From Kalmusia sp. IMI 367209 (lineage: Eukaryota; Ascomycota; Dothideomycetes; Pleosporales; Didymosphaeriaceae): 64,000 nucleotides of DNA. The position numbers and the translations under genes are program-made. The DNA lies in assembly GCA_027946365.1 (NCBI GenBank), contig JAPEUQ010000010.1, positions 496,001-560,000 of the forward strand, read 5' to 3'. Under the pieces are notes generated by a model, which ran no database searches, had not been told where the DNA came from, and worked only from the letters and a program-made list of their open reading frames with translations. Below are positions 3,628 to 40,715 of the stretch, piece after piece; positions within the stretch are counted from its first letter, which is position 1; each line of letters starts with the position of its first letter.

Positions 3628-3859
3628 GTCGTCATGGGAGAGCTCTGGTATTCAGCGAGAGTATTCGATGAATTGCATTGCGTAATCATCTTCTCTAGCA
3701 ATCAAGAATCGACTGGGAGTTTGCCACGTTTACCACCATTTTATTGCCCAACTTAAGCATATATGTACTCCCTAATGTATTGTCTAAGGCATTAGACCAG
3801 TGAAGACCCACCATCCATCTAAACGAAAGTTAACCTAGAGTTAGATAGGAGAATTTTCC

Positions 3860-17401: not shown

Positions 17402-18280
17402 ATTGAGGCAACTAGGCGGACCGCACGGCAATGCGCTCAATTTCTGGAGTCGTTCGGGGCACGCTGGAACGCAACTGCGGTGTCGAAGTGAATGTCGTGC
17501 TGCGGCTCGCATCCAGAGCGAGGTGCGGGCCTATCACGTGCGATTTAGCGCTGCAGTGGCCTACCGTCCCGTATTGCGCCGCTTCGCGTAGCTGACGCGA
17601 TAGCTGCAAACATCGCTCCTTGCTCCAGTGGGCCCGACGTCCCTTTGTTCCACTCCGTACGACACGGGACCGCGCCAATCTGCCCGATCGCCTGCACGCT
17701 GCGTCGTTGTTTTCGTTGTCCTACTGCGTGCCGAGCATCTTCGATTGTTCCACCGCGTCGAGGGCGCGGGGCCGGCGGCTATTCGCCAAGGCAAGCTCCA
17801 GTGAGCCTTCACGGCCTACAGCGTACCTCCCAATACGCACCGAGATCGCGTGCAGAGTACCATCAAGCTCCACTTCTCGGTTTGGAGGCTTGGGAAGATT
17901 CGTCATTTCTACATTGTATTGAATAGCGACATCACCACATCGCCACATCAAGGAAGCCTTGCAGCGGCTCTATCAACACTGCAGCACCGCGTAGCAGCCA
18001 CTTCTTGGACCTAGTACGCTGTAGCTAGGCCAATCTCACCCCTCGTCATGTAATCAGCGTGGTCATTGTATTCAAGAGATATGCTTTAATTAGGCCAGAC
18101 GAAACCTGGCGTCCCACTGAAGAGAGAACATCTATGAAGTTGGAATATGCGAATGCAGATATTAGACACCCAAACACCATGCTAAGCTCCCAGAACCGCC
18201 TCTACCCTACAGTGGCTCTGAAAGATGTGTACCACATCACTAAAATTTGAATGAAAATGCCTTGCCATGGTCCTCCCGTG
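17402..18280. other. Intergenic, no gene seen
   Basis: About 0.9 kb between the start of the regulator gene and the end of the epimerase gene. It has CG-rich stretches near 17500-17900 but no supported coding frame. Confidence 0.4.
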
Positions 18281-19823
18281 TCAGTACTCCATTTGGTCAG
18301 GTACCGGACACCGACCCTTGGTGAAGTTCCACACGTCCACTGAACAGTCTGCCAATGACTTTCTTGCCTTCCAGGCAAGCTCGCTCTCCGCTCTTCGGAC
18401 CTCTGCCACACAAAAGCCCACATCGCCTGCCCTCCGACCTACCTCACGCACAGGTATTGTTCTGCCCGAGGTTGTTTGAAGGCTCTCATGCACTTCACGC
18501 ACAGTGTGTCCTCGACCGGTTCCTAGCAATTGTCAGAGACCTATCAAAGTAAGGTGACCTTCACACAAGTCCAACTTACCGAGGTTGTACGCCCGGAAAG
18601 GTGCCTTTATCCTACCCGCAGCTGATGCTGCCAAAGCCGCGATATGGCCTTGTGCTAGATCCACTACGTGAATAAAGTCTCGAACAGCCGTTCCGTCCGA
18701 GGTATTCCAGTCGGTGCCAAAGATGTCCAGAACGGGTTTAGTACCCGTCAAGACAGTGGCGATCACGGGGATGAGGTTGCTCGGTTTTTGGCGAGGATCT
18801 TCACCGAGCAATCCCGACTCGTGGCATCCAACCTATAACACCCTCGTCAGTTGATTACGCACTCCCGGCCACTGGGCGACTTACAGGGTTGAAGTATCGC
18901 AAAGCTGTGATCGACCACGAAGGATCTGACCGCGCAATATCCGCCAAGATCGACTCACACATGAATTTCGACCGACCGTATGGTGAGGTGAGACCCATTA
19001 CCCCCGGGACTGCCTGTCGCTCGGATCCCTCGTTGTCGCAAAACGTCTCCGGGTGGTGTACGCAAAGTTCTTCACGTAGCGGAACGCCGCAATTGGCGCC
19101 TTCTCCGTAAACTGTTGCTGAGGACGAAAATACAAAGTTCTTGATGCCAAACTCCTCCAGCAGGCCGAGGAACTCTACCATACCGCAGACGTTGTTCATA
19201 TAGTATTTGAGCGGCATTCGGATACTCTCTTCAACCGACTTGTACGCAGCAAAATGAATCACCCCAGAGATCCTGGACTCGCGTCTAAGAGTTGGCTCTG
19301 GCGTCTCTTCTGCATCCATATCGATCCCAGAATCAGTCCGTTGGAGTGTTGAGTAGGGGAATCGTGCTGAAGGAATCGCATGAACAGGCTTGCTGCAGAT
19401 GCTATACGAGGAGTAGCTTGCGAGAATTGATCTCATGAGCGGACTTCTGTAGTCGAGTTGTTGAAAATGCAACGCCGGCACGGGCTTGCCGAGGGTCGCA
19501 CAATATTCGGTCGCTAAAGCCTTGATGCGGTGCAACACGCTATCATAGGAGTTGCTCAAATCGTCAATGACCAGAACGTTGTAGTTCGCCTTCATCAGCT
19601 CAAGCACGGTGTGAGAACCGATGTACCCAAGGCCTCCAACCACCATGATAAAGGAAGATGAGGCATCTTCACCAATATCAAGAGGATCCGCGGCAACGTC
19701 TTCGTCGAATAGAACCGATTTCTGGGTGTCTGGAGTACTGACGACTTGAGGTGATTCTAGAACTGACAAGGAGAAGCTGGAAGGAGATGATGCTCCTGTG
19801 TCTGGGTTCGAGCAGCACTCCAT
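18281..19823 (-). CDS. uge3: UDP-glucose/UDP-GlcNAc 4-epimerase of the GAG cluster (Uge3-like)
   Basis: Three exons (19823-18885, 18832-18580, 18522-18281) give 477 aa. The short-chain dehydrogenase fold is complete: NAD loop VVGGLGYIGSHT at about residue 61, SSSATVYG, the catalytic pair Tyr282 and Lys286 in SPYGRSK, FGTDWNTSDGTAVRDFIHV, and the C-terminal VPDQMEY. The protein is longer than plain GalE because of a leader of about 57 residues before the fold and a loop of about 50 residues before the RISGVIHFAAYKSVEES block. In A. fumigatus Uge3 makes both UDP-galactose and UDP-GalNAc for galactosaminogalactan. The call here rests on sequence plus position as the first of five syntenic cluster genes. 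Sequence alone would also fit the general Gal10/Uge5 epimerase. Confidence 0.85.
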
Positions 19824-20426
19824 GGCGAGATCAGGAATTAGAGGATGGTTCAAAGAGTGACTGTGCGATTTTCGACGATTCCCAATAACGGTACTTGCAA
19901 TTGTCTTATATATGTCGAAGCTTTGAAAAGCTCACGAAGCACGACCCGATTAGGCAGAAAAAACTCGATGCGAGTTTTTCCCAGTACCGCCCAATATCGT
20001 TTATGCTGGGCCGCCCTTGGCACGCTCCGGCCGCTTCATCCCGATTTATTCTGGTCAAAAGCTGGCCCTCTGGTCTAGCACTCTCGAATATAGTCCTTTC
20101 TCGGTTACATCCCTGCACAATTTGTATGGCATCACATTGGACTACGTACCCCCATATGGCGTGCAAGGTCGCAGTCTCCAGATGCTTCCATATGTTTTGT
20201 GGAACATGCAAATGGGATCTGGCCTACAGCGAACGCATGCCGTCGGCGCTTGAATCTTGGATGCGGCTCCAGCTCTGCAACCGTCCATTTTCCTCCTTTC
20301 GGCTCCACGAATCTAGACAACGTTCGCAGCGTGCATTTCCAGCCGCTGCACGCTTGCTAGCCGCTCCCTAGCTAGCCCTGCTCTGTGTTTGCAAGCAGAG
20401 AAGCAAGCACGCGTGTGCCATTAGCC
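19824..20426. other. Divergent spacer between uge3-like and sph3-like loci
   Basis: The 603 bases lie between the epimerase start and the first recognisable sph3 codons. I searched it for the membrane-anchor exon expected of Sph3 and found none. Confidence 0.45.
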
Positions 20427-21455
20427 ATGGCCGCCTCCGTAATTCTTCCGCTCTTCATTTTCCCCTCGACCGGAGCGTGGGAGCCTGTCTTCCAGCTGCG
20501 AGTAATTTTCAATCGAGCATCTCCGCCAAGTTGGAACGGACACCAAGGTCTGACCAACGAAGGGCTTCGTCGTAACCACGAGTGCAGTTCACGGCAATCG
20601 TCAACCCGAATAGTGGCCCAGGGGAAACAGTGTTGCCGAACGAGGAGTATTCGCAAGCCATTCGGAAATTGAACGCACTCGACAATGTCCGCACTATCGG
20701 TTATGTGTCTACCACGTGGTGCTCAAAGAGTTTAAAGGCAGTACTCAACGAAGTTGCAGTCTACTCTGGATGGGGTATGCACGACACCTCATTGGCCATG
20801 AACGGAGTATCCTTCGATGAAACGCCCACGCGTTACACTTCAGAATATGTTACCTATCTACAAAGCATCTCACGGGCAGGTCATGAGAGTCACGGGTTAA
20901 AGGAGGGCTACGTTGGGAAGAGAAGTCCCTTTCATTTCGGCATTGGGCGTAGGGCAAAGCTTCTACTCGTGTCCGAGGTCGGCATGCGCGGCGTAAGGTT
21001 CTGTCCGCCCCATTGCCACAGTTTGCTCCAAGGCAGCCAGGTTCTTCTGTTGGCAACCTGGCAACCGGATTGCCTGAACATTCGGCAGTTGCAGAGTTTG
21101 CGACTAAAGGTACATTGCAGTGCTTGATCCAGGCGCAGTCCCCGAAACGCCTTACTTCACCAATCCCGATATTCTCGGTACGGCAAATCTTACCATCACC
21201 CATGAGAATATGTTTAGCAACCGGATACGCTGCGCACATCCTCTCACTCGAGCTACATAGCTTCGCGATCAAAAAAAAAAGCTTGCACTCATGCTGCACT
21301 CCGCTCCGGCTTCAAGCAAGCATAACATTGAAGCTGTTCTCGGTGATATCCTATTAGTCGGCCACAGCGTCTGGCTCACCGGAACGAGCAATTACACCAG
21401 CTTTGACTCACACTTCCCGGTTTTCATTGACTGCCTGGACGCCTTGCTCTACTAA
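20427..21455 (+). pseudogene. sph3: Degenerate GH135 spherulin-4 glycoside hydrolase (Sph3-like)
   Basis: Three separated blocks match spherulation-specific family 4. Block one, from ATG 20427, has SVILPLFIFPSTGAWEPVF. Block two, from about 20583, has QFTAIVNPNSGPG, NVRTIGYVSTTW and GVSFDETPTRYTSEY. Block three, from 21121, has VLDPGAVPETPYFTNPD, then LALMLHSAPAS and a normal-looking end, CLDALLY, before TAA at 21453. The blocks are in different frames at two joins. A 53-nt gap (20530-20582) and a 241-nt gap (20880-21120) could be introns by phase, but the donors are poor and the second removes part of a conserved strand. Inside block three a TAG at 21258 is in frame with both its flanks. The N-terminal membrane anchor of Sph3 is missing. 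In A. fumigatus Sph3 cleaves GAG and is needed for its production. I judge this a decayed gene; misassembly is the main alternative. Confidence 0.72.
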
Positions 21456-24400
21456 ATTTTGTTCGGTCTGAGGCCCTCTCTCGATGTGATGAAGGTGCCC
21501 GATGCTATGGATTTAGCAGTCGAGAATAGAATGCATATATTCGATCAGTGCGCCGCTATTGCGTACTGACCCGGATACGGATGTTCGTTTTCCACCGAGC
21601 ACGAATGCTTCTTCAATAGAAGCATGCAGCTCCAATACATGCAGCCGCACGTCATTTTCCTATAGTCTTCGTCACGACATCCTTCACTGGCATGTGGCAT
21701 CCGCTGCAGAGCGCTGATCACCCTGATCGTTCTCAGGCCCCGTGTGAATTCCAGCAATGTGGTGAGATGGTGCGATGGTGCGATGGTGGCTGGAAGGCGC
21801 GAAGTGAGGTGACGGGTGTTCTGTTTCCTCGAGTGAGCGGACCGTGAGCCCGCCGGCAGAATCTGCAGTCTCTGAGCATCAGAAACAGGAACAGGAATAG
21901 TCAAAGTACGGAGGTGTGCGATCGCGGAATAAGCAACGATCTTCATAACCTCCCCCTTTCCCCGCGAAGTGTGAAAGACCTCCACAACGAGGCGGCGGCG
22001 GGGCCTCTCGCCGCTTTTACGACTTCGTGTCGGGGGGCGAATCCCTGATCAGCCCTGGCACTAGACCCTTGTTGTGCGCGCTAAATTCGCGTGATCACTC
22101 TAAATCAACCCTACCTCTTCATCTTTCCTGCATCACACACAGCGGCGAGCCTCTTCACCGGCGCCGGCTGGCCTCCGAGCTCTCAAATTTTCGCGCCATT
22201 CTATACAGCCTCAATTTACTCCCCGCAATTGAACCAGAACTTGTCGCTGCGGCTTCGTTGTTGACGTGGCGCTCACTACCGCACTCTACGGCTTCAAGGC
22301 CTGGAAACAATAACGAGCTTTCGTCGCTACCGATCGCGAATATGCTTGTCGGGGCTTTTTTTCTCCCGCATACTTGGCGATGCGGCGCTTGGAACGCCTT
22401 CGAAGTTACCATTACCGTTGAGGTGATCGCGGGAGCAGGCTCTGTATTGATTCTACTAACTAAGAAACACATCCTAGTCAATCGCTCCCAAGAGGTCTTC
22501 AGCCGCCACTTCATCAAAGAAGATGCATAATCATGTCGTACAGCGTTGACATGCTTCGGCCGCTCTCGCACGTCCTCCAATGCTGCATCTTTAACACGAA
22601 GCGAACATAAGAATACGAAAGGCAAAGCAACTAGAACAGCGTTACTATTCACGGACACGAGTCGCATATCTGCATGCATTAACCAGCGAATATGCAGTCA
22701 TGCTACAAGTCCACGAGCTGCAGCAATGCGTTTGTGACTGCAAGCTCAAATCCAAGCACTGACCCTGTGCATGCCAGAGCCAAACTAGCCCCCTTTTTGT
22801 GCATTCTGGGAGCTAAGCGGACATACATTGAATCACAGCTTACCAATGTGTAAGCCAGGTGACTATTTTGCATTATACGTCAAGACCGACACATACGAGA
22901 TGATAGGTGGTTGTTTTGAGCATCTCTTAATACATCTTAAGCCTATCCCCACATGCGCTTTAGATCTTTAGTATTCGTGCCGATATTTGCGGAGCTATTC
23001 GGCGACGGGCAAATCGGCACCAATATTTCGGTCTACCTTGACCCGAGTGCCCAAGCCTATATCCATGTTGATGCGGTTGCTGGGGCCATAACCCAATCTA
23101 CAGCAGTGGACTTGCCGAGCGTTCCGCAGCGACAGTACCAAGAGATCAAGAGATGCTGGGTGCACTGCCGACCCAAGATACCGCAAGTCACTTGCAGACT
23201 CTTCGCGAGCGTCGCAAGTCGGGTTACGATTGAACTAAAAGTTTCCTCTGTCTTCAAAAAGCAATGAAGCTTGTCTAGTCGAATCGTATCGAATGACCTT
23301 TGATATTGTTGAGTTGAGCACATCTCCACCATGTTGGTGCTAAGATGGTTCGACAGAATGAGCAAGGTATACAACTTATGCGCCGTGAGCCTTTTAGCGT
23401 GGTTCGTCTGCTTGAACCTAGTTCGAACTCCCCGTATCGCCCCGCCAACAACAGATGCTTGTACCAGGTGTCTCAAAAGGTTTGCCCCGGTGCTCGAAGT
23501 TCGGAGATTAGGGTAAAATCTGAACATACTTCTCCTATCCTATCACCAGCCTCGCAACACAAACACTTGTTGAGTTGCATGCTGACCGTATTCTTTACGG
23601 TCGGACATCGGCTGTGACTCGGATGTCTCGCACTCTAAGCGAACTCTAATACTGCAGTGAGCGGAACCGACGTGGTTATGCACGAGCAGATTTGAAAGAC
23701 TATGACTGTCTTGCGTGCGGAATGCCATAGATGGTTTCATCCTACCTCTCAGTCGGTTCCAATTGCATTCAACAATACTTTTGAAAGGGGGACGCGTACT
23801 CCCTGCTCCATAGGATCGTTAGGGAGTGAGCAAACTTCTTCACCCTAGTTGCAAGCGCCCTGTGCCGATCTCCACACCCTAAGATCTGGTACGATTCTTC
23901 CGCATTCAACCGCCTGTCAACCCCGGCCCTCTCGACTGGCATGGGAACCATAATCTCGATCCAGTAAATCATACATGCGTACTTTCGAATTTTCTGAGCC
24001 ACACTAGCGGTGGCAACATGCCTTTTGCATATGCCAGCCAGCATCTTCTATGCCTCGTTAATCAAATTCAGTGGTCCATTACGTTTTACACTTGCTTTCA
24101 ATTCACCGGTTGCAGTTCAGCATCGGGCAATAGGTGCGTGCTGTTAAGAGAAGGGATCTTCTAGCTTACCATGAGCTTACTTTCTACGGAGTTGCGGAAG
24201 TTGGGCATCTCCACCACCAGTTGCTTTGTAGCGCCACCTTCGTCAATCAGCACGCAAGATGACGTCTTACGATGCGGCTCAAAGTCAAGTGATCAGCGTA
24301 TTAGATTAGAGATGCGGAGGAGCTCCGTTCCAGATCTGGACAACAGATTTTTTACTGATTGTGACATTTCGTCAACCTATACATCGTGAAAGCGTTTATC

Positions 24401-24879
24401 CGCACCTGCCGCTAACACCAAGACTACTATGCCAGAATCTTGCGTTGAGACTCAACGTCTCAAAGCTTAATTGCGCTGACGAAGCTTACTTCAAGACGTC
24501 TTCTCTGCACCCCACACGCTGTACCCCGCAGTTCCCAGTCTTCCCGGCAGAAATCCGCGGCTAGGTCCTCCCAGTCACCTCCGGTACTATGTACCTGCGT
24601 AGAACAAAAGAGTGCCGAACAGTTCGCTTCGATGAAACCCAAAGTGCCACACACCTGACCTCGGGTTTCACACGCGGAAACCATGCAGACGGCTTCTTCC
24701 CCAGACCTTGCGCGACGCGTATTCATGCATTGAACCTTTCGAGCCGTATGAGCTTCCTCTTTCAGTAATATCAGCGACGGCTGATCCTTCTCGAGCCTTT
24801 GGTTGGTACCCTGTTCGGAACTTCACGACGGTGCTGATGTTGGGTGTCTTCGTTCACCCTTCGTTCTATCTCGTACGAC
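21456..24879. other. 3.4-kb gene-poor stretch inside the GAG cluster
   Basis: This is the longest gene-poor stretch of the window. Open frames such as 22027-22530 and the overlapping pair around 22953-23527 show no domain, no intron logic and no codon bias that I can recognise. It may be the remains of older genes or a repeat that has mutated beyond recognition. I see no terminal repeats or transposase motifs. Confidence 0.4.
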
Positions 24880-26032
24880 TCAATTTCCCGAATCCGTCTG
24901 ATTCACTGCTGTGACCTTTATTTCTTGATCACAGTACTCCACCCACCCATCCAGATCCATGTTCTTCAGCACTGTGCTAAATCCATCGCTACCTTTCGCG
25001 TCCCCTTTGTTTCCACAGTACTTTTGGACGACGTCCTTCTTGAGCCCTTTCTTATTGCCTGCGCCCTCGGGATACTCGATGTGAAAGACGGGTTTCCCGG
25101 CGTCAATGAAGGCGTGAAACGTGTCGCATTCGCTTTCCTCGACGCACTGCTCGTTGACGGAAAAGTGGACGATGGGAAGTACATCGGGGATGATATCGCC
25201 AGCGTTTTTTAGGCCCATTGTGAGGTTTAGGGGGACGGTGAGGTTGGAGAGGTAGCTAAGGAAGGATATACTGTCATTTGCGGTGAGGTCGAGGCCGTTG
25301 TCGTTTTGCTAACTAAGCATCAGTATTGTTCGTTCGGTTCATCACCTCTTCAATCCCCGCTTCCCAAGTCGCCTTCTTTGTCCTATTCTAAATGATTGGG
25401 ACAGCACAGGAAAGGGCGGAGAACTCACAAATCCATCAACATTATCTGGATCCACACCATCACATCCTTTCTTCCCTGCCAGCTCTATCCTTCCCTTCAT
25501 GATACTCCTCACATTGCTACTCTCAAGCTTCAACCACCGCTCGCCTGGCCACCCGTCCAACTCTTTCCCTTTATCCTCCTCCTTGAACTGATCTGAGTCC
25601 AGACGTCCTGGCTCATAGCTGCCCCCGCTAAAATAGCATATTACCCTTTTACCAAGGCGATGTAGGGTCTCGATTGTCTCGGAGGAAGTCTCGAAGAGAT
25701 CGATGTCGTAGACAGCCACGTCGGGCGTGACCGAGGTCGCAGATGGGTCGAGCAGCATAGCCGAGGAGAGGATGATTTGCCATGTATCATTCACACGGGG
25801 GTGTCCACGATAGGGTGCCATTGGGGGTAGGGAGAGGGGAGGCAGAGGCTGTTGGAGCAGGTGAACCGTTGTCGCCTCCATCATTATCGGAAGAGTCGTC
25901 GTCGTCGTCGCGGCCAATTGTGAGTCCCAGACCTAATCCAAGCGCCAATCCGAGGACGACGACAGCAAGAGCACCGCCGATGAAGAGCTTCCGCCTCAGC
26001 GACCACGGATGGGAAATGCGCTTTTCAGACAT
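24880..26032 (-). CDS. ega3: Membrane-anchored GH114 endo-alpha-1,4-polygalactosaminidase (Ega3-like), with a one-base frame break
   Basis: Two exons, 26032-25429 and 25308-24880, joined at a phase-0 intron. The N-terminus has a single membrane helix at about residues 17-40 and then an acidic/Ser linker. The GH114 TIM barrel follows: WQIILSS, DVAVYDIDLFET, RVICYFSGGSYEPGR, DGWPGERWL, the active-site strand CDGVDPDNVDGF, then LKNAGDI, HFSVNEQC and PVFHIEY. The two halves of exon 1 lie in different frames. Dropping one base from the five-G run at 25797-25801 joins the linker to the barrel, and exon 1 then becomes 603 nt, giving 343 aa in total. No splice signal explains the shift. In A. fumigatus Ega3 cuts the galactosamine parts of GAG at the cell surface. 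Either the base is a sequencing error or the gene is inactive. Confidence 0.82.
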
Positions 26033-27242
26033 CTTTTGTAGGGGCTCTTGGAGTGCGAATGTGAAGTAGAAATAATAGTTTATTTGGTTTCTGACACGCA
26101 CGCCGGTCCAGCATGCGTCGAGCGGAAGGAGTACTCCCTTTGGAAAAGAGGCTCCACTGTCCTTGATTGACGAGCGTGAATGTCAGTCTATGAGTTACAG
26201 CCCTCGAATTTACTCTCCGCCCTTTTTCGCGCCGAGGCGCAGTCAGCGGGCGCTGTACCAGATGAGCCGTCAAAGAGCCCGCTGTAGAGTTTAGCGTCGC
26301 CAAACCGGCGAATCTTGTCGTAGAGGAGCAACACAAGGGGAATCTATCCGTTGCGTGAGCACTATGCGGCTATGTATGTTGGCGCTGGAAGGGGCTTAGC
26401 GCGCATAACGGATAATATGGGATCGTGGCGCGTAGGAGAACGTAATACCGATGGCTTTTTTTGACCCTCGTGCGTCTTTCTCAGCTCCCTTTTGAATACA
26501 TCGCCGGGAAGCGCAAGACGTTTTTGGGGTTGAGAATCCGATCTCGAGTCGGGCTCGGACTACACTTCGCTAGTCCCGCAATAGGAAAATGAATCGCTGG
26601 AAATCTCACAGCGGGCATGGGTGCAGCGCGGAAAGAGCCGCAATATGTACTGCCATTGTCCAATAATAGTAGTAGGGCTGTGCGTACGTTAGGTAAATTG
26701 CGGAGGCGTGAGCTGGACCATGGACTAGGACTCCTAGACAGTATTGTGGCTGTGGCTGTGTGCCGTGCTCAGATCTGCTGGTGCCCAAGTTCGAACGCCA
26801 GGTTCGGGCCTCTTGTGGTGGTTGAGAGCTTGCATGCTAGGCTCGTTCTTGCGGAGCAGAAAACTGCGGTGGTCTGCGTGCGTGGTGCCCGGGAAGAATA
26901 GGTTTGGTGTTTTGCCGGCACATGTACGATCGGACCGATTCGCGTCTAAGTGAGTGAATTGACTAACCGTTTTGAATATGATTAATATGATTGGATAGAA
27001 ATGCTGCGAGCTAGCCGCTTTAGGCCCGGTGATCAACGAAGGCATCATCGCACAGAATGGCGTTCCATCGCAGTTCGCCTTCAGGAATTGCAATGCAGAA
27101 GCAACATGCATTAAGTTTCAATTCGATAATAATGCAATTCCGTAACAGAAGCCACACCTTGCTTTTGGGTATAGCAACATTTCTAACTAACGAATGCAAT
27201 TTTTCCCACATGCTTGATATGTACAGTACATCCCCACCTAGT
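26033..27242. other. Intergenic between ega3 and agd3
   Basis: About 1.2 kb upstream of ega3 and downstream of agd3. No frame here is supported. A GTTCGAAC element near 26791 resembles a tRNA B box but lacks a matching A box and arms. Confidence 0.4.
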
Positions 27243-29595
27243 CTACAAAGGAAGAGCCTTGGAAAATTTGTATGTCCTTGAAGCGCCACTCATGGTAACC
27301 CACAAAGTGAGCGGGTCCGTACCGATCTGCTCCTTAGTCGCGCCTGTCGTCGAAGACGGCGTGGAAGGTAGTGTGATCGGGATGGTAGTGCCACACTTGT
27401 TGCCGCCAGCAGTGTAAACAGTGACACTTTCAATGCTATTCCCATCCGCAGTGGTTTGCCAGGTCAAGCTGGGGCGGCAGAGGTCGCGAGTTTGGCGGTT
27501 GAGGAAGGCTTGGGCGAGGTCGTCGTGTTTGAGAGTCTTGAAGGGCCAAGTGGTACTGTGCAGGCGTTAGAACTGGGAGTAGATGAAACTTGAGTGAAAA
27601 AGGGACATACAGTCTCATAATCTCCGCAGAGACGATTTCGACCCAAGTCATGAGGAGCGAGTACTGGCCCCTCTTGCCGTTGACGGTGGTTTGCGGGACG
27701 TCGTTGACCCTCAGATTGGCTTGGTGAAACATGTAACTATTGGACTTGTTAGTTAGAAGCAATCAGAAGATCAAATATTACTTACGGATCCCAATGCAAG
27801 CCCAACAAATTGCGCATGGCGGTGTCCCGGGCGCTCGTTAATAAATCATTGAAGGTACCCTTTCCGCCTGAGGTATTGATCCATTCCTGTAGAGTGCAAG
27901 CCGGGAGATCGCAGTTGTAGTAAATGACACTAGCCCACCGGGGCATAACGTTGACCCCAGCATATCCGTTACCGGCGACAGTCGTGTTGAGCGGCCAGAA
28001 CCGGTTCTGGGTATTCAAAAGCAATGGCCTGGTATTGTCACCAACAACGTTGACGATTCCGTTGTCCTTCCAAGCTTTGAGGGCATCCGCGTTATGCAAG
28101 CCAGTGATAGCAGGAGGAATGATCCCGTTGGGGCTGAAGCGCTTAGCAGCGTCCAGTCCGACCTGCTTCAGCCACGCTTGATTAAAGGAGATTTCTTTGG
28201 ATGTGTCCGAGTACGTAGCATTGGTGAGATCTTCGTGAGTACTATGTATGATTAGAAGATATTGATCAGAGAAAGCGCGCAACTTACAAAGTATGGGAGA
28301 TGTGTGCAAAAGCATCGCGATTTGATTCATCCGCGAACCAATTCTCAAGCTCGTCGATCTCATTACACTCGAGACTCCAACCATACTTCGCAGGAGTAGT
28401 GGGCCACAAGTCCTTACCAGTACCTGGTGGCTTGGTGTAATCAGGAGGACCATCGATCTGGTCGGGATATTCGATTCCCGAAGTTGGACTGCAAGTTCGT
28501 TCGCCTTCGGTAGTGTCCGTTGCTGCTTCGATAGCACCGTTACCGTTGTGTCCAATCTCCAGGTAGTATTCAGACCCCTTCGGCATCTTGGTATTGAGCG
28601 TAGTCTGCCAATCAACATGCGCGCTGAGGTCATCTGGCTTACAGCGGTAGGATTGGCCTGAAGGCGTGTATAACGGAGTCTCTAGGAACATGTCATCCAC
28701 TTGGGTACTAAAATACAACCTGCGGAAGCCAACATAGAGGCCTCTTGTGATCCAGTTGATCCACGCATGCTGCAGGTAGTTTGACGACGGAGCCCAATCG
28801 AGAGCAAACGGCATGAACCATGCCATCTGTTGACGGGTCCCAATCTGATTGATGACACCAGCGGTCCCAGAACCACTGAACTTCGCGAACTCCCAAGCTA
28901 TCGAAGAATTGGTGACTTGTGCTGGGTTGTGGAAGATATTCGCGATGCTCACATTCGCGCTCCTAGCGACTCCGTTAGTCATCTTGCATGTGCATATATT
29001 AAGTGCATCGGTATCGACCAGGACTTGCAGAAGATCCTCAAAATTTTACTCGAAGCGAAAAAATGGGGTAAACGTACGATTTTAGGCCTGCAGTAGAGAA
29101 ACCAGTCACATTCGTGAAGACAACCGGCTCATCTTTGACATTGCCACCCAGACTGACAACACCGAAATCGCTCGTTGGGAATACGTCTAGTCTCACCATG
29201 CGCACACCGAATTGAGTTTGGTAGTTCCAAAGCTGGTTCCATTGCACTCTCGTAAGGGCACTGTAGTATTGGTCGCCGTAATTGTAGCCAACTTCGCTCA
29301 CTACTACAATGCCACCATAGTTTCCATGGGTAGCCGAAGCATTGAGAATTGGAAGACTGCTAATTCCAGCTTGGGGAACGGTGACCACTTCGAACGGAAT
29401 GCCATAGCCTTGGAGCCCAGACGTAGCACCGTTAAGTGCAGATGTGTCATCTCGTGCGAGGACAAGGATGGTACTGGAGACTGTAGCAGCTGAGATGGCG
29501 GCTACGGCTGCAGTGTCCGCAGACGCATGCTGAACGAAGAGAACAAGTGCGGAGAGAATCAACGTCCGCAACAACACAGTGAAGGGCGGCGCCAT
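27243..29595 (-). CDS. agd3: Extracellular GAG deacetylase (Agd3-like, CE18)
   Basis: Five exons (29595-29078, 28962-28288, 28241-27786, 27736-27611, 27555-27243) give 695 aa and every junction keeps phase. A signal peptide (LLRTLILSALVLFVQHASA) opens the protein. The first 170 residues form the Agd3 N-terminal region (STILVLARDD, GGIVVVSEVGYNY). The metal-dependent deacetylase domain includes YFSTQVDDMFLE with the aspartate pair and FAHISHTFTHEDL, created by the exon 2-3 splice, carrying the histidine ligands. The C-terminal part has the NVMPRWASVIYYNCD and QYSLLMTWVEIVSAEIMRL blocks. In A. fumigatus the enzyme removes some N-acetyl groups from GalNAc in secreted GAG, which makes the polymer cationic and adhesive. 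No break was found, unlike ega3 and sph3. It is divergent from gtb3. Confidence 0.9.
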
Positions 29596-31228
29596 TGCGT
29601 AGAGACAGTGTTGAAGAGCAACAGCGTGAAGATGCGAAAGTTCGGGGCTCTGATCGTATTAATAAATCTAGACTCGGCAGAAGTACCACGTTGGCTATTG
29701 GGCAATGGCTAGACATTGGCCCAGACGAAGCATATAGAAGCATATACGCACAAGCCAGAACTATTGATTCGCAATGCTCACTCGTGTGCCGATTCCGATT
29801 CCAGCGATGGCCTGGAACTATGACGCGGCATGATGAGTTCAAACTACGCGTCTGGCAGTGTGCACTGCAACCCCAGAGCTACACTAGTTACGGGAGGTAG
29901 CGTGAGTGACAAAAGGTGGCGCTGAATGGATATAGCTGTACAGGGGTCTTGGCAGATGGCCATCTGAGAAGTGGACATCGGATGGGTAAAATTTTGCGCC
30001 ACGTGTGAAGCCACTCTTTAGGTAATATCAGGAAGGGGAAGACGTGATGGCAAAGCATTGCATCGAGCATGCACGCCGGCGGTGCGTGCAGGCGAACAAC
30101 CGGGAACCCATCAGCCCATCTGGGGGAGACTCGTGGAGGGTACCAGACGGAACTAGACTGCGAGTCCAGGTGCCGCGTCGGCTACAGAGTCCCGCAGAGC
30201 TCCAGTGCCACTAGATCTTGATGGAATTGGACGATGTATTGGGGTCAACGCGGCCTGGGACCCGAGGAAGCGTGCTGGCTGGGCGCCACGCAAGCTCGCT
30301 ATTTGGCAAATATGGATATCGTATACGGCCCTGGTGCTCATATCGAAAAGACGCATTGTGTAACGTCGAGGCAATGAAGGGGATATTAACACAGTGCAGT
30401 GGAGGAGGTTAGGCTAAAGGGGGATGCCGGCTGCCGCGCCAGTTAAAACGGCAATGCGCACGGGCCGGCGCTAAGGGGAGACCCCTGTCGCCTTTCAGCC
30501 TCCCCCAAGATTCGTCTCGTCTACCACTGGCGTCATGTCTCTGCACGTCTTGCCTCCGGACTTCTGTCGTCTTCCTTATACTACGCCTTGCCCCGCAACG
30601 CCAGCCGGTTGTCGACGATAGATTGCTGCTGCCCACGCATGCTCCCTGCCTGCCGATCATCTCCTGCCGCTGTCCGCATATTGCCCGGTCCAAAGGCTTC
30701 GACCGCTGCAAAACGCACTCTATGGCCGCCTCTCACTGCCCATTGAGGCTGCCAAGCTCGGCTGCACAGGCTTCTCGAAGAATAGCAATGCTTCTTCGCA
30801 GCAGGCCCTGCCTCGCCAGAGACATATGGCCGCACGCCGAAGTGCCATTAGCTGACGTTGCTGCTGGATGAACAGCAAGACACATGACTGCTTAGCACAT
30901 AGCCTGTCTATGTGCATCTGCCCGGATCATGAACGGGCTATCATAGTGCCGGCATTTACATGCCACCGCGCTATGGGGTTCTATTATTGTAGCGAAGGTC
31001 TCCCCGACAACTTTTTGCTCGGTCGTCAACCAGGTCGTCAGTGTCATCTAGCATGAAACACTGCAACCATTCCTTCTGATCATTATGTCTCTGCTCCCCG
31101 TCGGTCAATAGTGTTCGTTCTATAGCCGTGTCTTCCACGTTTGAGCACCTCTTCCCTGGGCCGGGCTTACTCTGCCGTGTGCTACCGTAAAACCCCGTAT
31201 CCGTCCGACGCGTGGATGACACGGGAAT
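29596..31228. other. Shared divergent promoter region of agd3 and gtb3
   Basis: The 1.6 kb between the two outward-facing starts contain no supported gene. The arrangement would allow joint control of deacetylase and synthase. I looked for StuA-type WCGCGWNM sites and found only partial matches. Confidence 0.45.
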
Positions 31229-34200
31229 ATGCCAAACATTCTCGGTATCACCGCTTTTCGGTCTGGTGTAGCTTTGCATGAGTGGTGGGAATGGGCTCTC
31301 GTTGCCGTACTCGCTGCAAGCGGGCTGTTTGGTATCATCGCACTTGTTTGGACATCCTTCAGCAAAATCACAAAGCTTTTGAAGGTGAGGAGTCGGCGCG
31401 TCCAAAAGAAATACAAAGCTCACTGTGATCTTCATAGCCTGACTCCGATGAATACCTGCTACCGTACTCGGTTCAAGAACGGCTACTGGTGCTTTCTCAC
31501 ACTGCGCACTGTGTGCGGCCAAAGCAACCTATCACCGACAAACCATCTTCTTTCGGCGTCTATCTGGGTCTGCTCAGCACACCTGTCACAAATGAGGAGA
31601 GACAAATATTAGCAGGATGGGATATGGTAGTGCTAGATCCAGGGCAGCCTGGCATTGTGGACGCCATCAACGATGAAAACGTCGTTCTTGGCCCACACAT
31701 TATCACCCGGCTGGACCTCGTCCAAGTGCTTCCATTCTCGGCAAAGGACAACGAGATAGATATGCTCAAGGCGATACACTTGGTCTCCATGGTGCTGAAC
31801 GATGCAATACGGCGACCCAGCCAGCGGAGATACTGCACTGGCGTACTGATTGCCGGATGGAGAGAGCGTATATGCATTCAAATGCTTAACGGTCTCGCTA
31901 AGCTCTTTTATGCATATGGTCTCGATGTCTTTCTCGAAGTTAGTGCGCCTGATTTTATAAACGATGTCGAGAAGCTCAACTTCAAGCTTTTTGCTGGCAT
32001 GATTGTCCGAAATGGAACCATCCTGCAAAATGGAGAACGCAGAGACTTTTTTGCAATGGACAAGATGAAAACTACCACAAAGGCATTCGTTTCACAAGCA
32101 TGTCTACGGCCATTCCTTACGATGATGTGGGACACGATCGATGATGATGCTGAATTGTCACACGCCGTTACGAGAAGAGCGCATATGTGGTGCAGCTACC
32201 ATGGAGCAGTACCGTACTTTGCGCGAGAGTGTGCTTTGAAGGACATTGCGGAAGTGCGCTCCTGTGAAGAGCCGCTGGCTGCATTTCAATGGCTCAAAGA
32301 TCGGAGAGTAATGAACGTCCATGACAGGTTTCGGACAACTCGTGTGGTAAGTCTGACCGAAACGAAAGCAGAGTATAGACTAACAGTGTGCAGCTCTCTT
32401 CCGAGTTCTCCAGCATTATTGATGACTACCTTCCTTTACAGCAGGTATTTCCACTATTGCAAAGCACGATATCAGGCTTGGATATCACCGATGATTCGGA
32501 TTCGGAAGACAACTCGAGCTCATCCACCCTTACCGTTCAGTTTCCGGAAATCGACCAAAACGGAGCTTTGATACCGTTAGAGCCAACATCCCCTGTCTCC
32601 ACAGGATTGAACTGGAGTTCTTCTGTTGAAAAGCGAGTCGCAAACCCGTTGTCATGTTCATTTAATGGCACGCTTTATGGTTCCCTGGGCTGTTTTCCAA
32701 TTGGCCTGGACGCCACTCAGGAGGACTTCAATCATGTGCTTCGCTCACAACAGCGTCTACGAAACCTAAACTTGTTGAGCATGCTGCCCGCAAAGAAGTT
32801 GCACGATGTTGCGAAACGAATCATCAGCTATAGTACCTCAGCTAGTCGTTTCATCGAGCTTATACCAACCGCAAGAGATACCCTCTCTACTTTTGCCAAT
32901 ACCCTCGCAAAGGCAAATGACGAGGCCGACGACTACCATCAGATTCGGGTGTACACAGGGCTTGATTCTGGATTCCACACTCCGACAGGCAGTCAGTTCT
33001 GGGCAGTATGGGAAGCTGAGCAGAGAACTTTCACTCAAGTCATCTATATATCCAAATCCGTCCAGGACATTGCGGGTGCTTTGTTACACACTTACTTGAG
33101 TAAATCAAGTTTCACACGATACCAATGCTTCCTCTTAGAGTATGGTTTGAGTGAGCATTGCAGCGAGTCCAGTCAGCTCAGAAAGCTTCCAGAGCGAATG
33201 GAACAGGATCTTTCTTTACTGTCTTCCGCCGACCTGCTGCTTTATCTTCAACATCTGCAGCACACAGAATGGGATGAATCGTGCCCTTTGCTGTCGGCAA
33301 TACGAAACCAATGCGAAGAATACCTCATCGATGTTCCTACCTACCGTCAACTGAAAAAGCTTAGCAATATGGAATACATCGCCGGAACAATAACAGACGA
33401 ACATCTTGTCGGTGCGCGGATCAAATGGTACCGGCTATGTCGCCTGCCCTGCCTCGATCGTCAGGATGCTCTGGCACTCTTTAGGCACATCGATCTAAAT
33501 TTTCGCAACGCCCTCTGGTGGCGCGATTACAAAAGTCTTGATACAATTACTTCTGCAATTGAAAAGCTAACAAAACGAGCAAACATCGACTCAGTGTCTG
33601 ACTTTGTCTTGTTTTGTATTTTCTGTGCGGCTAGAAAAGCTGGTTTTGAAGAAGTATACATTGAGGTTTCGGATCGCAACCCATTGTTCAACCAATATTC
33701 CGATCAGAGTGCTGCTTTTGCAGAACTTTTCGCCTTAGGGTCTCGCTGCGAGGCTTATTTCGACATCATGCCTAGCGACATCGGGATATTGCTTTCCAAA
33801 AAGCATAGAGACCACTATAACGAGCCCGGTCACCAGCCACCAATGTGGATTTTCAATGCGCCCTCTTTCGCCTCGGCATATGCCGCAGCTCAGACGGATA
33901 TCGACCCGGATCAGAAACCCTCTGTGATGCCAGGATACCGTCGCTTCACGTTCCTTAGCGTATTCGCTATCCCAGCGCTTGTTGGTAAGACTGGAGATAC
34001 TTTTGAGCTTCATGCAGTTACTGACAGATACAGATATTTTGCTTTTGTCCACAACAGGCCATGGCCTTTATCTCAGCGCTGCTATGACTTATGAGGAGCA
34101 GAAGTACGCTACATTGGCCCTGATGACTTCTTTACTACTTTCAGGAGCCATTGGAACCTGGATATCGATTGGTGGCACTTATTACCTGATTTCTATGGCT

Positions 34201-37200
34201 TTCTCCGCAGCGAACATGTTCGTGTTGACCCGGTTGATTGGAGGCCTTGCTTTCACCCTAGCCGCCAGCCTTGTAGGCTTTGTTGTGATCTCAGCTGTTC
34301 AAGGACCTAGACAAGCGGCCATATTCTTCTTCTATCTGGTCGGATTAACATCCTATCTTTCTGTGCTGGCCGTACTTTCTACGTACCAGGTACCTGGGTC
34401 TTCTTTCCTCAACGGTCGTCGTGTTATCATCGCTGTCGTCCCGACACTCATTATATCTCCAATCATCACTATCTGGGTTGAGGGATACGACATCATCATT
34501 TATCCTTGTGTCCTTTATATTTTTGTCCTATTGCTAGTCCTGGGGACACGGCACGTTGCAACGCAATGGGTAACCTGGTATCACAATATCAAGACTCTTA
34601 ACGACGCCGACGTGAAGGACTGGTATGTACAGACAAGCCACAAGAGGCACCCTCCGGCAGGTGTCGGTCGTGTTTCACGTAAGCGCAGTTCACTTCTCAT
34701 TACTAAAAGGTACACTAACAACGTATCAGCGAACCGACTAAGCAAAGGTCCTCGAACGTCTATGGCTCCATCCTCTTCTTTGGCACCATCTTCCGAGATC
34801 ACTCCTGACGCAGCTGAGCTGTTCTATGGGTTAAGTGAGCCAGCCATCCTCGCGCTCTGTCGAACGGAATTGTACAACGCGGTCATGAAAGAGAAAGACA
34901 GGCACTTCTGGATTAGGCCTACGGACGATGTATTCGTCAGACAGCTTGCAGAATGCTGGGATTCTACTCTCTTTCTATTAGACTGGTATTGCCGGCTCAC
35001 GGATACGAAGCGGCCTATTCCATATAGTTCTACATGGAATCTCGAGACTCAGGTCGCTCTAGAGAGTATGCAACAGTCACAAAAAGGTATACGCTTACAC
35101 AATTCTTTCATCCATTGGCGCAACGCCGGTGATGAAGTGGGCTGTGGCATACTCTACTTTCTCACGGCGCTTATGGATCGCTGGCTTGACCTGGTCCACG
35201 GCGGTCATCTTGTAGGCTTATCTCCGCAGACGAACACGACTCTTCGCTTGTCCGTAGGGTTCGGTCTTGCGTACTATCTAATTGGCGCGGTCCTTCTCGA
35301 CTACAAAGCCCAACATCTCCACCAACTATCAGAGCAGATGGCACCAGTCTCGATCGAAAACATCCCACACATAAAGAAAGCCAAGTCCAATGATATGAAG
35401 TTTCGTCGCCATCTATACTGGAACACGCTCTGCCACTTCATTGGAGTCCATGTTTGGGCCCTGGCACTCAGTGTTGCACTAGTATGGATCTTCAATGGTT
35501 CTTCGTTGGGTACGATCATGTTCTTGGCTTATGTGGGAGCATACAGTGGATTACTTCTTTATCAGTACAACAAGATATTTTCAGGGCCACATGCCTTGAT
35601 GCCTCTGTTATCCGCCGTCGTTCTTGGGTTTGTCCTTGGTAATATCCTGAAAAAGGTGAATCGAGACTTCCAGTACAATAACGTCATCGCGCTCTCGGTA
35701 TCTACCTGGACTGCAGCCTTGCTCTCGTTCCACACAGCGAAATTGGGCTTACCCGAAGCCTTTGACGTGAGGATGTGGATTTCTGAAAAGATGCAGGGTT
35801 TCAAGCGTCATTCAAAGCATCCCAACGATTCGTCTGACTCTGTACATATTCGTGGACTCCCATCTGGTTACCGGATACATTGGTCAAGCGCAGAAAAATT
35901 CCATGCCTATAACGGGACTGGCATGGATGCAGAATGGAGTCAAAGCGAGCTTCAAGCCTTCACCGATAAGTTGCGAGCTGCGCCAAAGGAAGATCGCTTT
36001 AGAGTTCTGCCGTATGGACATCCCGGAGATCAGGTGACTGCCATCTTACTGTCATGCACTCATGAATCCCTTTCGCGGTTAGCGCTCCAAGCTTACCCCA
36101 CGATGCCATTTCTAGTCCAGAGGGTAGTCTTGGCATGGCAGAACGGCCTTATCAAAGTCTTCATTGTTCCCATGCAATCAGTGACGGACGACAAGACTGA
36201 CCTCCGCGCAATTTCGCACTATTCAGACGGACGTCTGGCAGTTTTCGTAGCGTCGGATGCTAAAGGAAGCTCATCTACTCAATTGAACATCAGCAGCAAC
36301 TCACGAGTCATCGCTGAAACATTACTACACGCCTGTTCGGAAACTATGTTTGGCCTACCTCATTATCAAGCTGACATTACTGAGTCAATTCTAGTCTGTC
36401 GCTCCGCAAGCGGTGAGCCCTATGCCGTCTCCGAGTGCAACAAGCGCTCAATGCCTTCGAAAACCACTGGTGCAGAAGCAACTGCATTCGAGGTTCTTTG
36501 TAGGAAAGAACTCTTGCGCAATCTCTGCCTTGGTTACGATCCTGATTCGCAATGGGATGTCCTTCCCCTCGATATAAGGAAGATGTTCTTACGGCGATGT
36601 CTTGGCGCTCGTGGGCCATATACCAACACGGAAATGTCCTGGATTCTGTCCAATGTTGCAGCTGAGGACGCTTGCACCATTCTTTCTCGGCTGGCGAGAT
36701 ATGACCTAGGAGCATACCTATCGGTGCACAAGTATAACTACTTCAGAAACCGTGGCGACCAAGCACTCAGTGAGAAAGAGTACAGACAAATCACTGCAGA
36801 TATTCAAGAGGCCCATCATCCTATTCTCAACCGCTCTACGACGATGATTTTCAGCGATTACACTCATAGACTCAAGGCGCCCTTCGCCTACACATATCAT
36901 GCGGTCGGCACGTGGATCAAATTCTTTGTGCTCGCATGCATGGCTGACCCAGAGTACCAACGAGAGCTAAATTGCGCATTGACCAGGACACCACGTTTCA
37001 TAGCCAAGCCCGCTACGTTTCTACTCACAGGACTTTGGGTCTATAGTCGCGCTGCTATGTCGAAAGGCCTACCGTTTTTCCTCTACCACAACCGTAAAGA
37101 TATTGCCAATCTGGCAAGCACAGTCAAAGGAAGTCTAGTCACTCAGAAGAAGGATCGGCTCATTATTCGTAGCTACGGCGAGACTGAGACCGCGTTTGTT

Positions 37201-40200
37201 CACCCTCTAGAAAAACGTGGCTTCAAGCTTGTATTCTATCAAGGCGTATTAAAACAGGAGCCAACTTGGGGTCACACACGCATCTCAGAGTATGGCAGAG
37301 ACATGCTAATTGCGACTCGCAAAGAGTATAAGAACGGAAATGTCACCAACGAATTCGTTTACGACTACCCAACAAAATCAATGTCTCGTTTTGGCAAGAT
37401 ATCAAAGTATCACCACACTAGGCTTCCATCAGGAAGACAATGTATCAAGGGAGACGATGAGGGTGCGAAAGTTCAGTACAATCCAAAGGGTCACATCGAG
37501 TCTGGCAGCTATATGCAACATGGTAATCTGGTTCGCTTCAAGTACCACTACCGCAAAAACGCGAAGTATGACGATGAGCTTCTCAGAGCCGAATTCGTCC
37601 TTCCCCATATGTCAGTCAACGTGAGTTGGTGCGCTCCTCCAGTGCGTCATGCCGAGAAGATGGAACGATGGATACCAACACCTCGTGTTCACGAAGCAAC
37701 ATTCGTACAGGGTGCCGACGTGTACGAATGCTCATGGCTGTATGACCACAAATTCCATCCGGTCATATCAACAAAACTAAATGGTGAAACGGTTGACACA
37801 CCAGATATGATACGTCACGACTGGCTAGGTGTGTTGAAGAAGCCTTCGCGATGCAACTTCATGGACGAGAATCCGCTTTTAGACTTCAAGGCACCAACAT
37901 CGAGCTTTATGAGCCGCTTCTTCCGGACTAACATCAAGCGTCAGCAAATTTCGACTTCTCGAGCGCGATCTCAGCTATGGAAAGCTTGGAAGAAACGACT
38001 TGACTTGGATGGTGTGGTTGTTCGCTTTGTCGACGAAGAGCTCATCCGTAAGGAGGCGCTGCTACGACCATACTGGCGCCGACGCGACCGCGGAAGTCTC
38101 ATGAGGGCTGAGGACTATCTAGCTCTACATGCCGACGCGATCATGGCAAGCGCAGACCTTACCAGTGATATTAGTGCTTGGACGCCACTTGCGATCAGGA
38201 TGAGCGATCTTTTCAGTTTTGGACAAGGAGGTGACGCTGTCATCTTCACGCGAACGAAGGCGCTCCAAAGAGACACTGAAAACAGCCTTCACGTCATCGC
38301 CGTTGACACTGGTACGTGGCCGAACGAAGGCGGTGGTGTTTCCGCTTGTCGTCGTGACTTGATCAACAATCTTCGCACTATCAAATGGCACATGGTCGTA
38401 GAATCTGCCAATGACTTTGGTCTACCCAAGCACCAAACGGAAGAAAACGTCGAGTCATTGAAGATCATCCCGCTTTGGGGTCTTGATTTTCTCCATCCGT
38501 CTCATGGTATGTTTACGAACAAACTGGATAGTGAGGTCGATCACCTGGTGAAAGATGCCACGATAAATGACATTAAGGTCAATTTCATACCAACCCTGAC
38601 CGCACTTGTTCGAGGAGCCCGCTCGATCAGCATGACTGAAGCGGACGTCAAGCAAGCTACTCGAGCGCTCGTCAATCTCAATACGTACTTTCAAGACTCT
38701 CGCCATTGGAAAGAAGTTTGGACAAGCGATATTGTCAAGGACACTTGGAGAAAGCTTTGGTTGGCAGACGATATGCCCAACGCGCAACCACCCTCGGAGT
38801 GGTTTCGCACCGAGTTGCCGACGCTTGGACATCTCGATACTGCCTTAGAGCTATGGTTCAGATGTAAGCGCACCTCTCGTCACTGCTCGAGTTTGTTGTG
38901 ACTGACTATTATAGATCTTTTTATCTTCTCCATTCCTATACCCGAGAAGATTCCGAATGTCTTTCAAGCGTCGCATCATAGTGTCTCAGCCTCCTATGGA
39001 ATCGTTTGCAAGCTGAAGCGTAATTGTACGCTTCAAATTTGGGATCATGCTATCTCCTGGCGTGAGACGAACCTCTATCTCTCATCGGCTATGTGCACCT
39101 TACCGCCTTTCATTCGAAATTCTCTGCTTGGGTTGATGAAGTTAACTTCATGTCTCATTCTGCATCACGCTGACCAGATTCTACCGTGTGCAGGTAATTT
39201 GCATTCCTCCCATACCGAAAAGCAATGCGCTGACAGTTCATAGACTTTTTCAATCCCGGATGGGAAGTCGAGATCGGCTCTTCTAAAGGTCAACTCACCC
39301 ATCGAAATGTGTTCCGCCGGAAGGTCGATCCGATCGTGAATGGCATTCCAGACATGCAGAAGTTTGCACCAGTCACAGAAGTCAAGACAAAGTCACCCAC
39401 CGTCACCATGCTTTCCCATGTGTGGTTCGCAAAAGACATCAAAACTGCGCTTCTCGCAGCAGATATCATATCAAACGAGTGGGGATTCAAGGACTACAAG
39501 TTAGACATTTACGGTGCGCTCAACAAAGCCCCAGTCTACTCTTCCGAGTGTCAAGAGATTCTCGCTTGCAAAGGCCTCGGTCAAAGCGTCACTCTCCGGG
39601 GCACTGCTGATCCAGCAATGGTTCTCGCTAACACTTGGCTTTTCCTGAACTCGTCCGTCTCCGAAGGTTTACCCCTCGCCCTTGGAGAAGCTGCCCTGAC
39701 CGGCGCACCTGTTGTCTGTACAGACGTCGGCGCTTCACTACGTGTCCTTACTGATCCCGACGATGGTAAACGCTACAGCGAAGTCGTCGCGCCTAACGAC
39801 GCCTACGGGCTTGCACGAGCGCAGATTAATCTCCTCGCTATGCTCGACGAATGGGCACAATACGCAGAAGACCCGCCAGATAAACCCGCTCCCATTCTGC
39901 CCCACAAGCCCACGCCCAAAGATGTCGAGATCATTACGCATCGCATGTACGAGAAAACCGACCAACGCCGCAAACTTGGCATGATGGCGCGCACAATCGT
40001 TCAGAAGTCGTTCGGCGGCGAGCGCTACCTTCGCGAACACGAGCAGATGCTCTGGGTAGGCAAAGCCTGCTACGAAATGCTCGGTCTCGATAAACGCGTC
40101 CCGCCGCCAAAGCACCCAGGCCGTATGCTCTCGCTCCGGCGCAAGTCTGTGCAGCGACAATCCACGGATACAGCGTCGAGCAACGTCATCGATCCCCAGC

Positions 40201-40715
40201 TGGAGAAGATGCAGCATCCGCGCCCGCCGCTCGCGAGGCAGTTCTCAGCTGCTACGTCTTTCTCCTCCATATATATGGATGAGCCAACTGGTCCGTCAAA
40301 TGCAATTTACCACGACACGTGGGCACCCACTACACCTGATTCCTCCATGTTCTACCCGAAATCAGACACTTCTACCAAGGACGATAACTACTTTTCACGC
40401 GTCCCTCGACCGCCGCGTATCTACGTGCGAACACAAGCCTCGGGCTCTTCCATGGCAAGCTCCGCCATTGCGACTGGGAAGCGGCCCGTGCAGTATGGCT
40501 ACGGCTACGGCCATGCAGGTGGGTTTAAGCATGTCCCTGCTCCAGTGCCGCGGATGGACCCGAGACGCAGTGCGCTTATGAGGCAGAGTATGGTGAGCGG
40601 GAGTGCGAAGAGCAGTGTGAGGACGAGAAGTCATCTAAATGAGGTTGAGGTTGCGGAGTATCCTCCTGAAGGGTATGGGAATGTGGTAGATGTGCATGGT
40701 GGGAGCAGGATATAA
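31229..40715 (+). CDS. gtb3: Giant membrane glycosyltransferase of the GAG cluster (Gtb3-like)
   Basis: Six exons (31229-31384, 31438-32346, 32394-33984, 34058-38863, 38915-39193, 39244-40715) give 3070 aa, all junctions in phase. A membrane helix lies at residues 22-43. It is followed by a domain of about 300 residues that starts like a TIM barrel (FGVYLGLL, WDMVVLDPGQ, HIITRLDLVQV). Two groups of membrane helices follow, at about 900-1075 and 1340-1455. The C-terminal third is a GT4-type GT-B enzyme: NEGGGVSACRRDLINNLR at about residue 2307, LWGLDFLHP, then LDIYGALNK and SEGLPLALGEA at about 2720 with the E-x7-E pair. The last 250 residues are Ser/Pro/Arg-rich and probably disordered. In A. 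fumigatus Gtb3 is the predicted GAG synthase and exporter. Sequence shows synthase plus transmembrane parts; the function of the N-terminal barrel is inference. Confidence 0.9.

What the first reader, a model, noticed from the sequence alone, without database searches (positions are those of the whole stretch)
18281..40715. Complete-order galactosaminogalactan (GAG) exopolysaccharide cluster
Five neighbouring loci match uge3, sph3, ega3, agd3 and gtb3 in the same order as in the GAG cluster of A. fumigatus. Seen: epimerase, spherulin-4, GH114, Agd3-type deacetylase and a 3070-aa GT4 membrane protein in a row. Known: these families together make and process GAG, an adhesive polymer with parallels to bacterial Pel. 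Inferred: this organism can make, or once made, a GAG-type polymer. Apart from the decayed sph3 and the gene-poor gap, no unrelated gene is placed among them.
Basis: partly seen in the sequence, partly recalled or inferred. Interest (0 to 1): 0.9.

Follow-up and report, generated by a model that had tools for sequence, protein, structure and literature searches.

The report
Fungal sticky-sugar gene cluster, hydrolases broken
A fungus carries the known five-gene set for galactosaminogalactan, a sticky sugar coat, in the usual order, but one of its two sugar-cutting enzyme genes is broken in this assembly and the other appears to be.

Summary
Window 18281-40715 carries uge3, sph3, ega3, agd3 and gtb3 homologues in the order of the A. 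fumigatus galactosaminogalactan (GAG) cluster, a known, widespread kind in Pezizomycotina (PMC4817252). By hand-drawn gene models, uge3 (477 aa), agd3 (695 aa, complete CBM87, CE18 and C-terminal domains, four catalytic motifs) and gtb3 (3070 aa, PelF-like GT4 plus about 10 membrane segments) are open. 'Complete' is only partly right. sph3 has an in-frame stop that splicing removes only at the cost of at least 105 nt of homologous coding. Both cluster hydrolases are thus defective, or probably so, in this assembly, while precursor supply, synthesis and deacetylation are open. At least five other GH135 and four other GH114 loci lie elsewhere. The closest relative of solved Sph3 here is not the in-cluster copy but one on contig C9. 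I read this as a genuine GAG locus with a damaged hydrolase arm; whether polymer is still made cannot be told. New member of a known kind, modest interest.

The parts
18281..19823 (-). uge3-type UDP-glucose 4-epimerase; exons 18885-19823, 18580-18832, 18281-18522; 477 aa, open throughout
   Evidence: YxxxK and GxxGxxG motifs read from the sequence; Cys at the position recalled as the GALE specificity (gatekeeper) residue
20427..21455 (+). sph3 remnant (GH135 / spherulin-4); alignable pieces about 20427-20492, 20576-20917 and 21120-21455; in-frame stop at 21258-21260
21456..24879 (.). gap with no recognised gene (8 of 12 ORFs of at least 90 aa scanned); single copy in the genome
24880..26032 (-). 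ega3 (GH114 endo-galactosaminidase): membrane anchor from 26032 in one frame, GH114 domain (ORFs 25342-25932 and 24880-25308, one intron between) in another; frame switch about 25.80-25.83 kb, where two G5 runs lie
27243..29595 (-). agd3 GAG deacetylase (CBM87 + CE18 + C-terminal domain), 5 exons, 695 aa, four catalytic motifs kept
   Evidence: motifs defined in PMC7229062
31229..40715 (+). gtb3 GAG synthase: about 10 membrane segments and a C-terminal PelF-like GT4 domain; 6 exons, 3070 aa; no second copy found

Best explanation
This is the GAG locus of a filamentous ascomycete, most likely inherited with its neighbours from the common cluster (inferred from order; not tested by a tree). Shown: the genes for precursor supply (Uge3), polymer synthesis and export (Gtb3) and surface deacetylation (Agd3) are open, and Agd3 keeps its four catalytic motifs. 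Shown for the assembly: sph3 is interrupted by an in-frame stop. Probable: ega3's anchor and catalytic domain have fallen out of frame. Inferred mechanism, after the published A. fumigatus model: Uge3 makes UDP-Gal and UDP-GalNAc, Gtb3 polymerises and extrudes an alpha-1,4 chain, and Agd3 partly deacetylates it to a cationic adhesin. The trimming that cluster-encoded Sph3 and Ega3 would normally do at the membrane is lost in place. If polymer is still made, trimming is done in trans by other GH135 copies (anchored C23 copy or soluble C9 copy) and secreted GH114 enzymes, or is dispensable.
For: Domain and motif integrity of uge3, agd3 and gtb3. Best hits in this genome of solved Agd3 and Ega3 are the window copies. 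Published cluster order and content. sph3 stop at 21258-21260: of 20 GT-AG pairs of 36-200 nt that span it, 8 keep the frame, and each of these deletes at least 105 nt of homologous coding. ega3: the 6 frame-keeping GT-AG pairs found all use GTC donors and cut into the membrane helix, whereas 0 of the 12 introns drawn in the cluster begin GTC. Other GH135 loci and secretory-looking GH114 paralogues on C9, C14 and C29, by reading.
Against: In A. fumigatus Sph3 is reported as essential for GAG (passages of PMC6753227, PMC11356417 and PMC12054363). None of the five other GH135 loci is at once membrane-anchored (by hydropathy and hand models) and complete in the FFDE motif: the anchored C23 copy reads FFDH. 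The ega3 break is one shift near homopolymer runs and could be an assembly error. The 12 introns were picked by hand with consensus in mind, so the donor census leans towards consensus. The tree leaves the remnant's place open, and residue retention in the remnant (13 of 17 invariant sites in its second piece) is within the spread of intact copies.
Confidence: 0.5

Rival explanations
1. The cluster is dying: loss of sph3 (and ega3) has shut the pathway and the remaining three genes are intact only because the loss is recent.
For: Sph3 is reported as required for GAG in A. fumigatus (PMC6753227; PMC12054363; passages). Only one certain lesion is seen in sph3, so loss would be recent.
Against: No stop or frame break in the 14 exons drawn for uge3, agd3 and gtb3. 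Possible substitutes for both hydrolases exist in the genome.
Confidence: 0.3
2. The cluster is whole and working: the sph3 stop and the ega3 frame break are assembly errors or peculiar to this isolate.
For: Splice junctions 1 and 2 of sph3 can be drawn with GT-AG pairs, one of which also takes out the upstream stop. The ega3 switch lies among homopolymer runs.
Against: The sph3 lesion is a stop in an otherwise aligned frame, not a length change; from general knowledge, assemblies err more often in lengths of runs. The 14 exons drawn for the other three genes are clean.
Confidence: 0.15
3. Chance neighbourhood of carbohydrate genes unrelated to GAG.
For: Each hydrolase family has several members in the genome.
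Against: Same order as the A. fumigatus cluster, Agd3-specific domains, no second gtb3 found, chance about 1.5e-10.
Confidence: 0.01

Closest known systems
GAG biosynthetic cluster of Aspergillus fumigatus (uge3-sph3-ega3-agd3-gtb3) and its relatives in Pezizomycotina (PMC4817252)
   Same: Five homologues in the same order; open Uge3, Agd3 and Gtb3 genes with matching domains.
   Different: sph3 has an in-frame stop, ega3 has a probable frame break, and a 3.4-kb stretch without a recognised gene separates them. Strand-by-strand agreement was not checked.
GAG cluster of Neurospora crassa NCU05132-NCU05137 (PMC11356417, abstract and passages)
   Same: Same five enzyme types; GH114 with a membrane anchor.
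   Different: N. crassa has a different order by locus number and a sixth small gene; its GH114-1 was shown active, its GH135-1 is named by homology.
Bacterial Pel operons (PMC7112168, abstract and one section)
   Same: The GT4 domain of Gtb3 has PelF as its best NCBIfam match (70.5 bits, under the cut-off of 100).
   Different: The fungal synthase is one 3070-aa membrane protein. In B. cereus, loss of the hydrolase PelAH increased adherent biomass, unlike the loss of GAG reported for A. fumigatus without Sph3.

Membership tests
GAG gene cluster (PMC4817252 criterion) | Predicted glycosyltransferase (gtb3) at the locus | tested here: met
   GT4 domain, PelF-like, EX7E motif, membrane segments, 3070 aa open
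GAG gene cluster (PMC4817252 criterion) | Epimerase (uge3) | tested here: met
GAG gene cluster (PMC4817252 criterion) | Deacetylase (agd3, CE18 + CBM87) with motifs DD, HxxxH, R and catalytic His | tested here: met
   VDDM, HTFTH, PRW and MFHQA found; domains; motif definition
GAG gene cluster (PMC4817252 criterion) | Either the hydrolase or the spherulin-like protein | tested here: inconclusive
   Both homologues are present, but sph3 has a stop and ega3 a probable frame break; the GH114 domain itself is open
Complete five-gene GAG cluster | Intact sph3 | tested here: not met
   in-frame stop 21258-21260 in this assembly
Complete five-gene GAG cluster | ega3 as one membrane-anchored GH114 protein | tested here: inconclusive
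   anchor and domain in different frames; the 6 bridging GT-AG pairs are poor; assembly error not excluded
Complete five-gene GAG cluster | Gene order uge3-sph3-ega3-agd3-gtb3 | tested here: met
   published order
GAG gene cluster | Best hits of reference proteins fall in the cluster | tested here: inconclusive
   met for Agd3 and Ega3, not met for Sph3; Uge3 and Gtb3 could not be tested
GAG gene cluster | Co-regulation by StuA and MedA | not testable with these tools
   no expression data
GAG gene cluster | GalNAc/GalN polymer made by the locus | not testable with these tools
   needs chemistry or lectin staining

The most novel reading that the evidence does not exclude
This fungus makes and exports a GAG polymer although neither hydrolase of its cluster works, so the membrane-bound Sph3 step held to be essential in A. 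fumigatus is either dispensable here or has moved to an unlinked GH135 gene (the anchored C23 copy or the soluble C9 copy).
Probability: 0.2. Interest if true: 0.55.

Novelty: new member of a known kind. Interest (0 to 1): 0.3.

Why it matters
GAG clusters are known from many ascomycetes, so the cluster as such is ordinary. The role of Sph3 in synthesis was described as unknown (PMC6753227, passages), and a later paper gives prevention of clogging only as probable (PMC12054363, passages). A locus with the synthase and deacetylase intact and both resident hydrolases defective would be a natural case in which to ask whether trimming at the membrane is needed for export.

Tried and rejected
Chance clustering: rejected by copy numbers.

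agd3 as broken: its exons lie in different frames, but four canonical introns join them, so this was dropped. gtb3 as broken: five introns join six exons.

sph3 as an old, multiply broken relic: first read as having lost donors plus two stops (my note says so). An enumeration of GT-AG pairs showed that junction 1 has 5 frame-keeping pairs, one of which also takes out the upstream stop, and that junction 2 has 11, so only the stop at 21258-21260 is counted as certain.

ega3 bridged by an intron 25932-25848: my note names it as the only candidate; the enumeration shows that it does not keep the frame and lists six others, all with GTC donors.

Repeat-induced mutation or a repeat in the gap: no sign; 8 of 12 ORFs of at least 90 aa there have no Pfam match, the other 4 were not scanned. 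A second GAG cluster elsewhere: the other GH114, GH135 and Agd3 loci lie far apart by coordinates, and the ORFs around the C9 spherulin and the C25 Agd3 paralogue show none of the other four genes by reading; these neighbours were not profiled.

A tree to ask whether the in-cluster gene and the C9 copy are the same gene: 7 sequences, remnant unresolved. The hold-one-out retention control does not separate the remnant from intact copies. The hydropathy control is weak too: the anchored C23 copy (2.54) itself lies under the 95% point of random stretches (2.61); I count it as anchored because the segment is in frame in the same exon.

The organism was not identified: no relatives of this genome are held, and the protein database was off.

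Full report
What is there. The window lies in a 42.78-Mb, 30-contig genome, fungal by its short introns and a Zn2Cys6 regulator gene (the organism was not identified). Between 18281 and 40715 it holds, in order, homologues of uge3 (-), sph3 (+), ega3 (-), agd3 (-) and gtb3 (+). The published A. fumigatus order is gtb3, agd3, ega3, sph3, uge3 (PMC6753227, passages; locus tags for uge3, sph3, ega3 and gtb3 in PMC4817252, passages), so the order is the same, read from the other end. Strand-by-strand agreement was not checked.

Genes that are open. Gene models were drawn by hand at GT-AG introns. uge3 splices to 477 aa over three exons, matches Epimerase at 128 bits and UDP-glucose 4-epimerases in the PDB (best E 1.2e-82). 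By eye its Cys in GDVGFC sits where I recall the GALE specificity residue (Cys in the human enzyme, Tyr in E. coli), which fits a bifunctional epimerase; this is recall, not a tool result. agd3 splices to 695 aa over five exons and matches CBM87, Agd3_CE (591 bits) and Agd3_C, all near full length. The motifs defined in PMC7229062 (section read) are present: VDD, HTFTH, PRW and MFHQA. gtb3 splices to 3070 aa over six exons (3078 with another acceptor), has 10 membrane-like segments by a hydropathy cut-off of 1.6 and an EX7E motif, and a C-terminal GT4 domain whose best NCBIfam match is PelF at 70.5 bits, under that model's cut-off of 100. Its longest exon frame finds no second copy in the genome. 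The V. dahliae synthase is given as 2856 aa with 11 membrane regions (PMC13245733, passages).

Tests against paralogues. Stretches of solved proteins were compared with the window and with the ten loci fetched for these families in this genome. Agd3 (6nwz): window 68%, C25 copy 51%. Ega3 (6oj1): window 54%, four others 50, 49, 42 and 39%. Sph3 of A. clavatus (5c5g; species from PMC12054363): C9 copy 53%, the C23 tandem pair 44% and 40%, C23b 39%, window 36%, C11 36%. By bit score the window copy (90) ranks fourth of the six, behind the C9 copy (114) and the tandem pair (97 and 92). Uge3 and Gtb3 could not be tested this way.

sph3. The pieces align to spherulin-4 proteins; the Pfam match to the first piece alone is not significant (E 0.74). 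The stop at 21258-21260 lies inside the third piece. 20 GT-AG pairs of 36-200 nt span it, 8 keep the frame, and each of these 8 removes at least 105 nt of homologous coding. The other irregularities are weaker than they first look: a GT-AG pair at 20502-20587 would also take out the stop at 20573-20575, and 11 frame-keeping pairs exist for the second junction. In the second piece the remnant keeps 13 of 17 residues that are invariant in six other spherulin-4 sequences; holding each of the six out in turn gives losses of 0, 3, 2, 1, 6 and 0 of 17-23, so this does not show decay. No strong membrane segment stands upstream of the remnant (best hydropathy 1.82; 200 random stretches of 600 bp have a median of 1.52 and a 95% point of 2.61), although Sph3 is described as having a membrane domain near its N terminus (PMC11356417, passages).

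ega3. The anchor (from 26032) and the GH114 domain are each open, but in different frames. Six GT-AG pairs could join them; all use GTC donors and cut into the membrane helix, whereas the 12 introns drawn in this cluster begin GTA or GTG (drawn by hand, so biased towards consensus). I therefore judge a frame break more likely than an intron, but two G5 runs lie there and an assembly error is not excluded. A membrane domain is described as a feature of the GH114 enzyme of N. crassa and of those in other fungal genomes (PMC11356417, passages).

Other copies (lower bounds by the search tool's own word). GH135: C9 (260 aa, soluble by model, FFDE and VVFE kept), C23b (its sister, 98/99 support), a tandem pair on C23 of which one has an in-frame membrane segment (hydropathy 2.54, itself under the random 95% point) but FFDH, and C11, which reads FFDD. 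GH114: C9, C14, C25 and C29; those on C9, C14 and C29 have secretory-looking N termini by reading. The tree of seven spherulin sequences leaves the remnant unplaced.

What it means. The cluster is a known kind: 28 species were reported by 2016 (PMC4817252, section read), and the criterion there asked for synthase, epimerase, deacetylase and either hydrolase or spherulin, so loci short of one of the two would already have been accepted. Sph3 is reported as essential in A. fumigatus, with a proposed role in preventing clogging of the synthase (PMC12054363, passages). In B. cereus, by contrast, loss of the Pel hydrolase increased adherent biomass (PMC7112168, section read). Both outcomes are possible here. 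One full-text search for GAG, sph3 and pseudogene together found 1 paper, judged unrelated from its title and the start of its abstract; one for GAG with Dothideomycetes found 6, none opened, whose titles show no study of this cluster; one for GH135, GH114 and GAG found 7, of which two were read in passages. Of 243 papers since 2022 that hold the word galactosaminogalactan, 30 were listed. Most subscription papers are not held, among them the Sph3 paper.

Verdict. Observation confirmed; interpretation partly supported; a new member of a known kind with a damaged hydrolase arm. Shown: gene families, order, open synthesis and deacetylation genes, stop in sph3 of this assembly. Probable: frame break in ega3. 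Inferred: common descent of the locus, that polymer is or is not made, and where replacement hydrolase activity would come from.

Noticed in passing
15202-17530 (-): Gene next to uge3 with a Zn2Cys6 domain and a fungal transcription-factor domain; a possible local regulator, not one of the five published cluster genes.
   Followed up: no
L029 (C25:3145500-3155400), 3586-5477: Second Agd3-type deacetylase outside the cluster with its catalytic motif regions present; no GAG neighbours seen by reading.
   Followed up: partly
L032 (C23:2598500-2608400), 3290-5548: Tandem pair of spherulin-4 genes, one membrane-anchored with FFDH in place of FFDE.
   Followed up: partly
12034-12906 (+): Nas2-type proteasome chaperone gene (PDZ) near the cluster.
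   Followed up: no
44193-45104 (+) and 59445-61580 (-): AIG1-like GTPase piece (22.1 bits, under Pfam's cut-off of 27) and a DUF3176 protein on the far side of gtb3.
   Followed up: no
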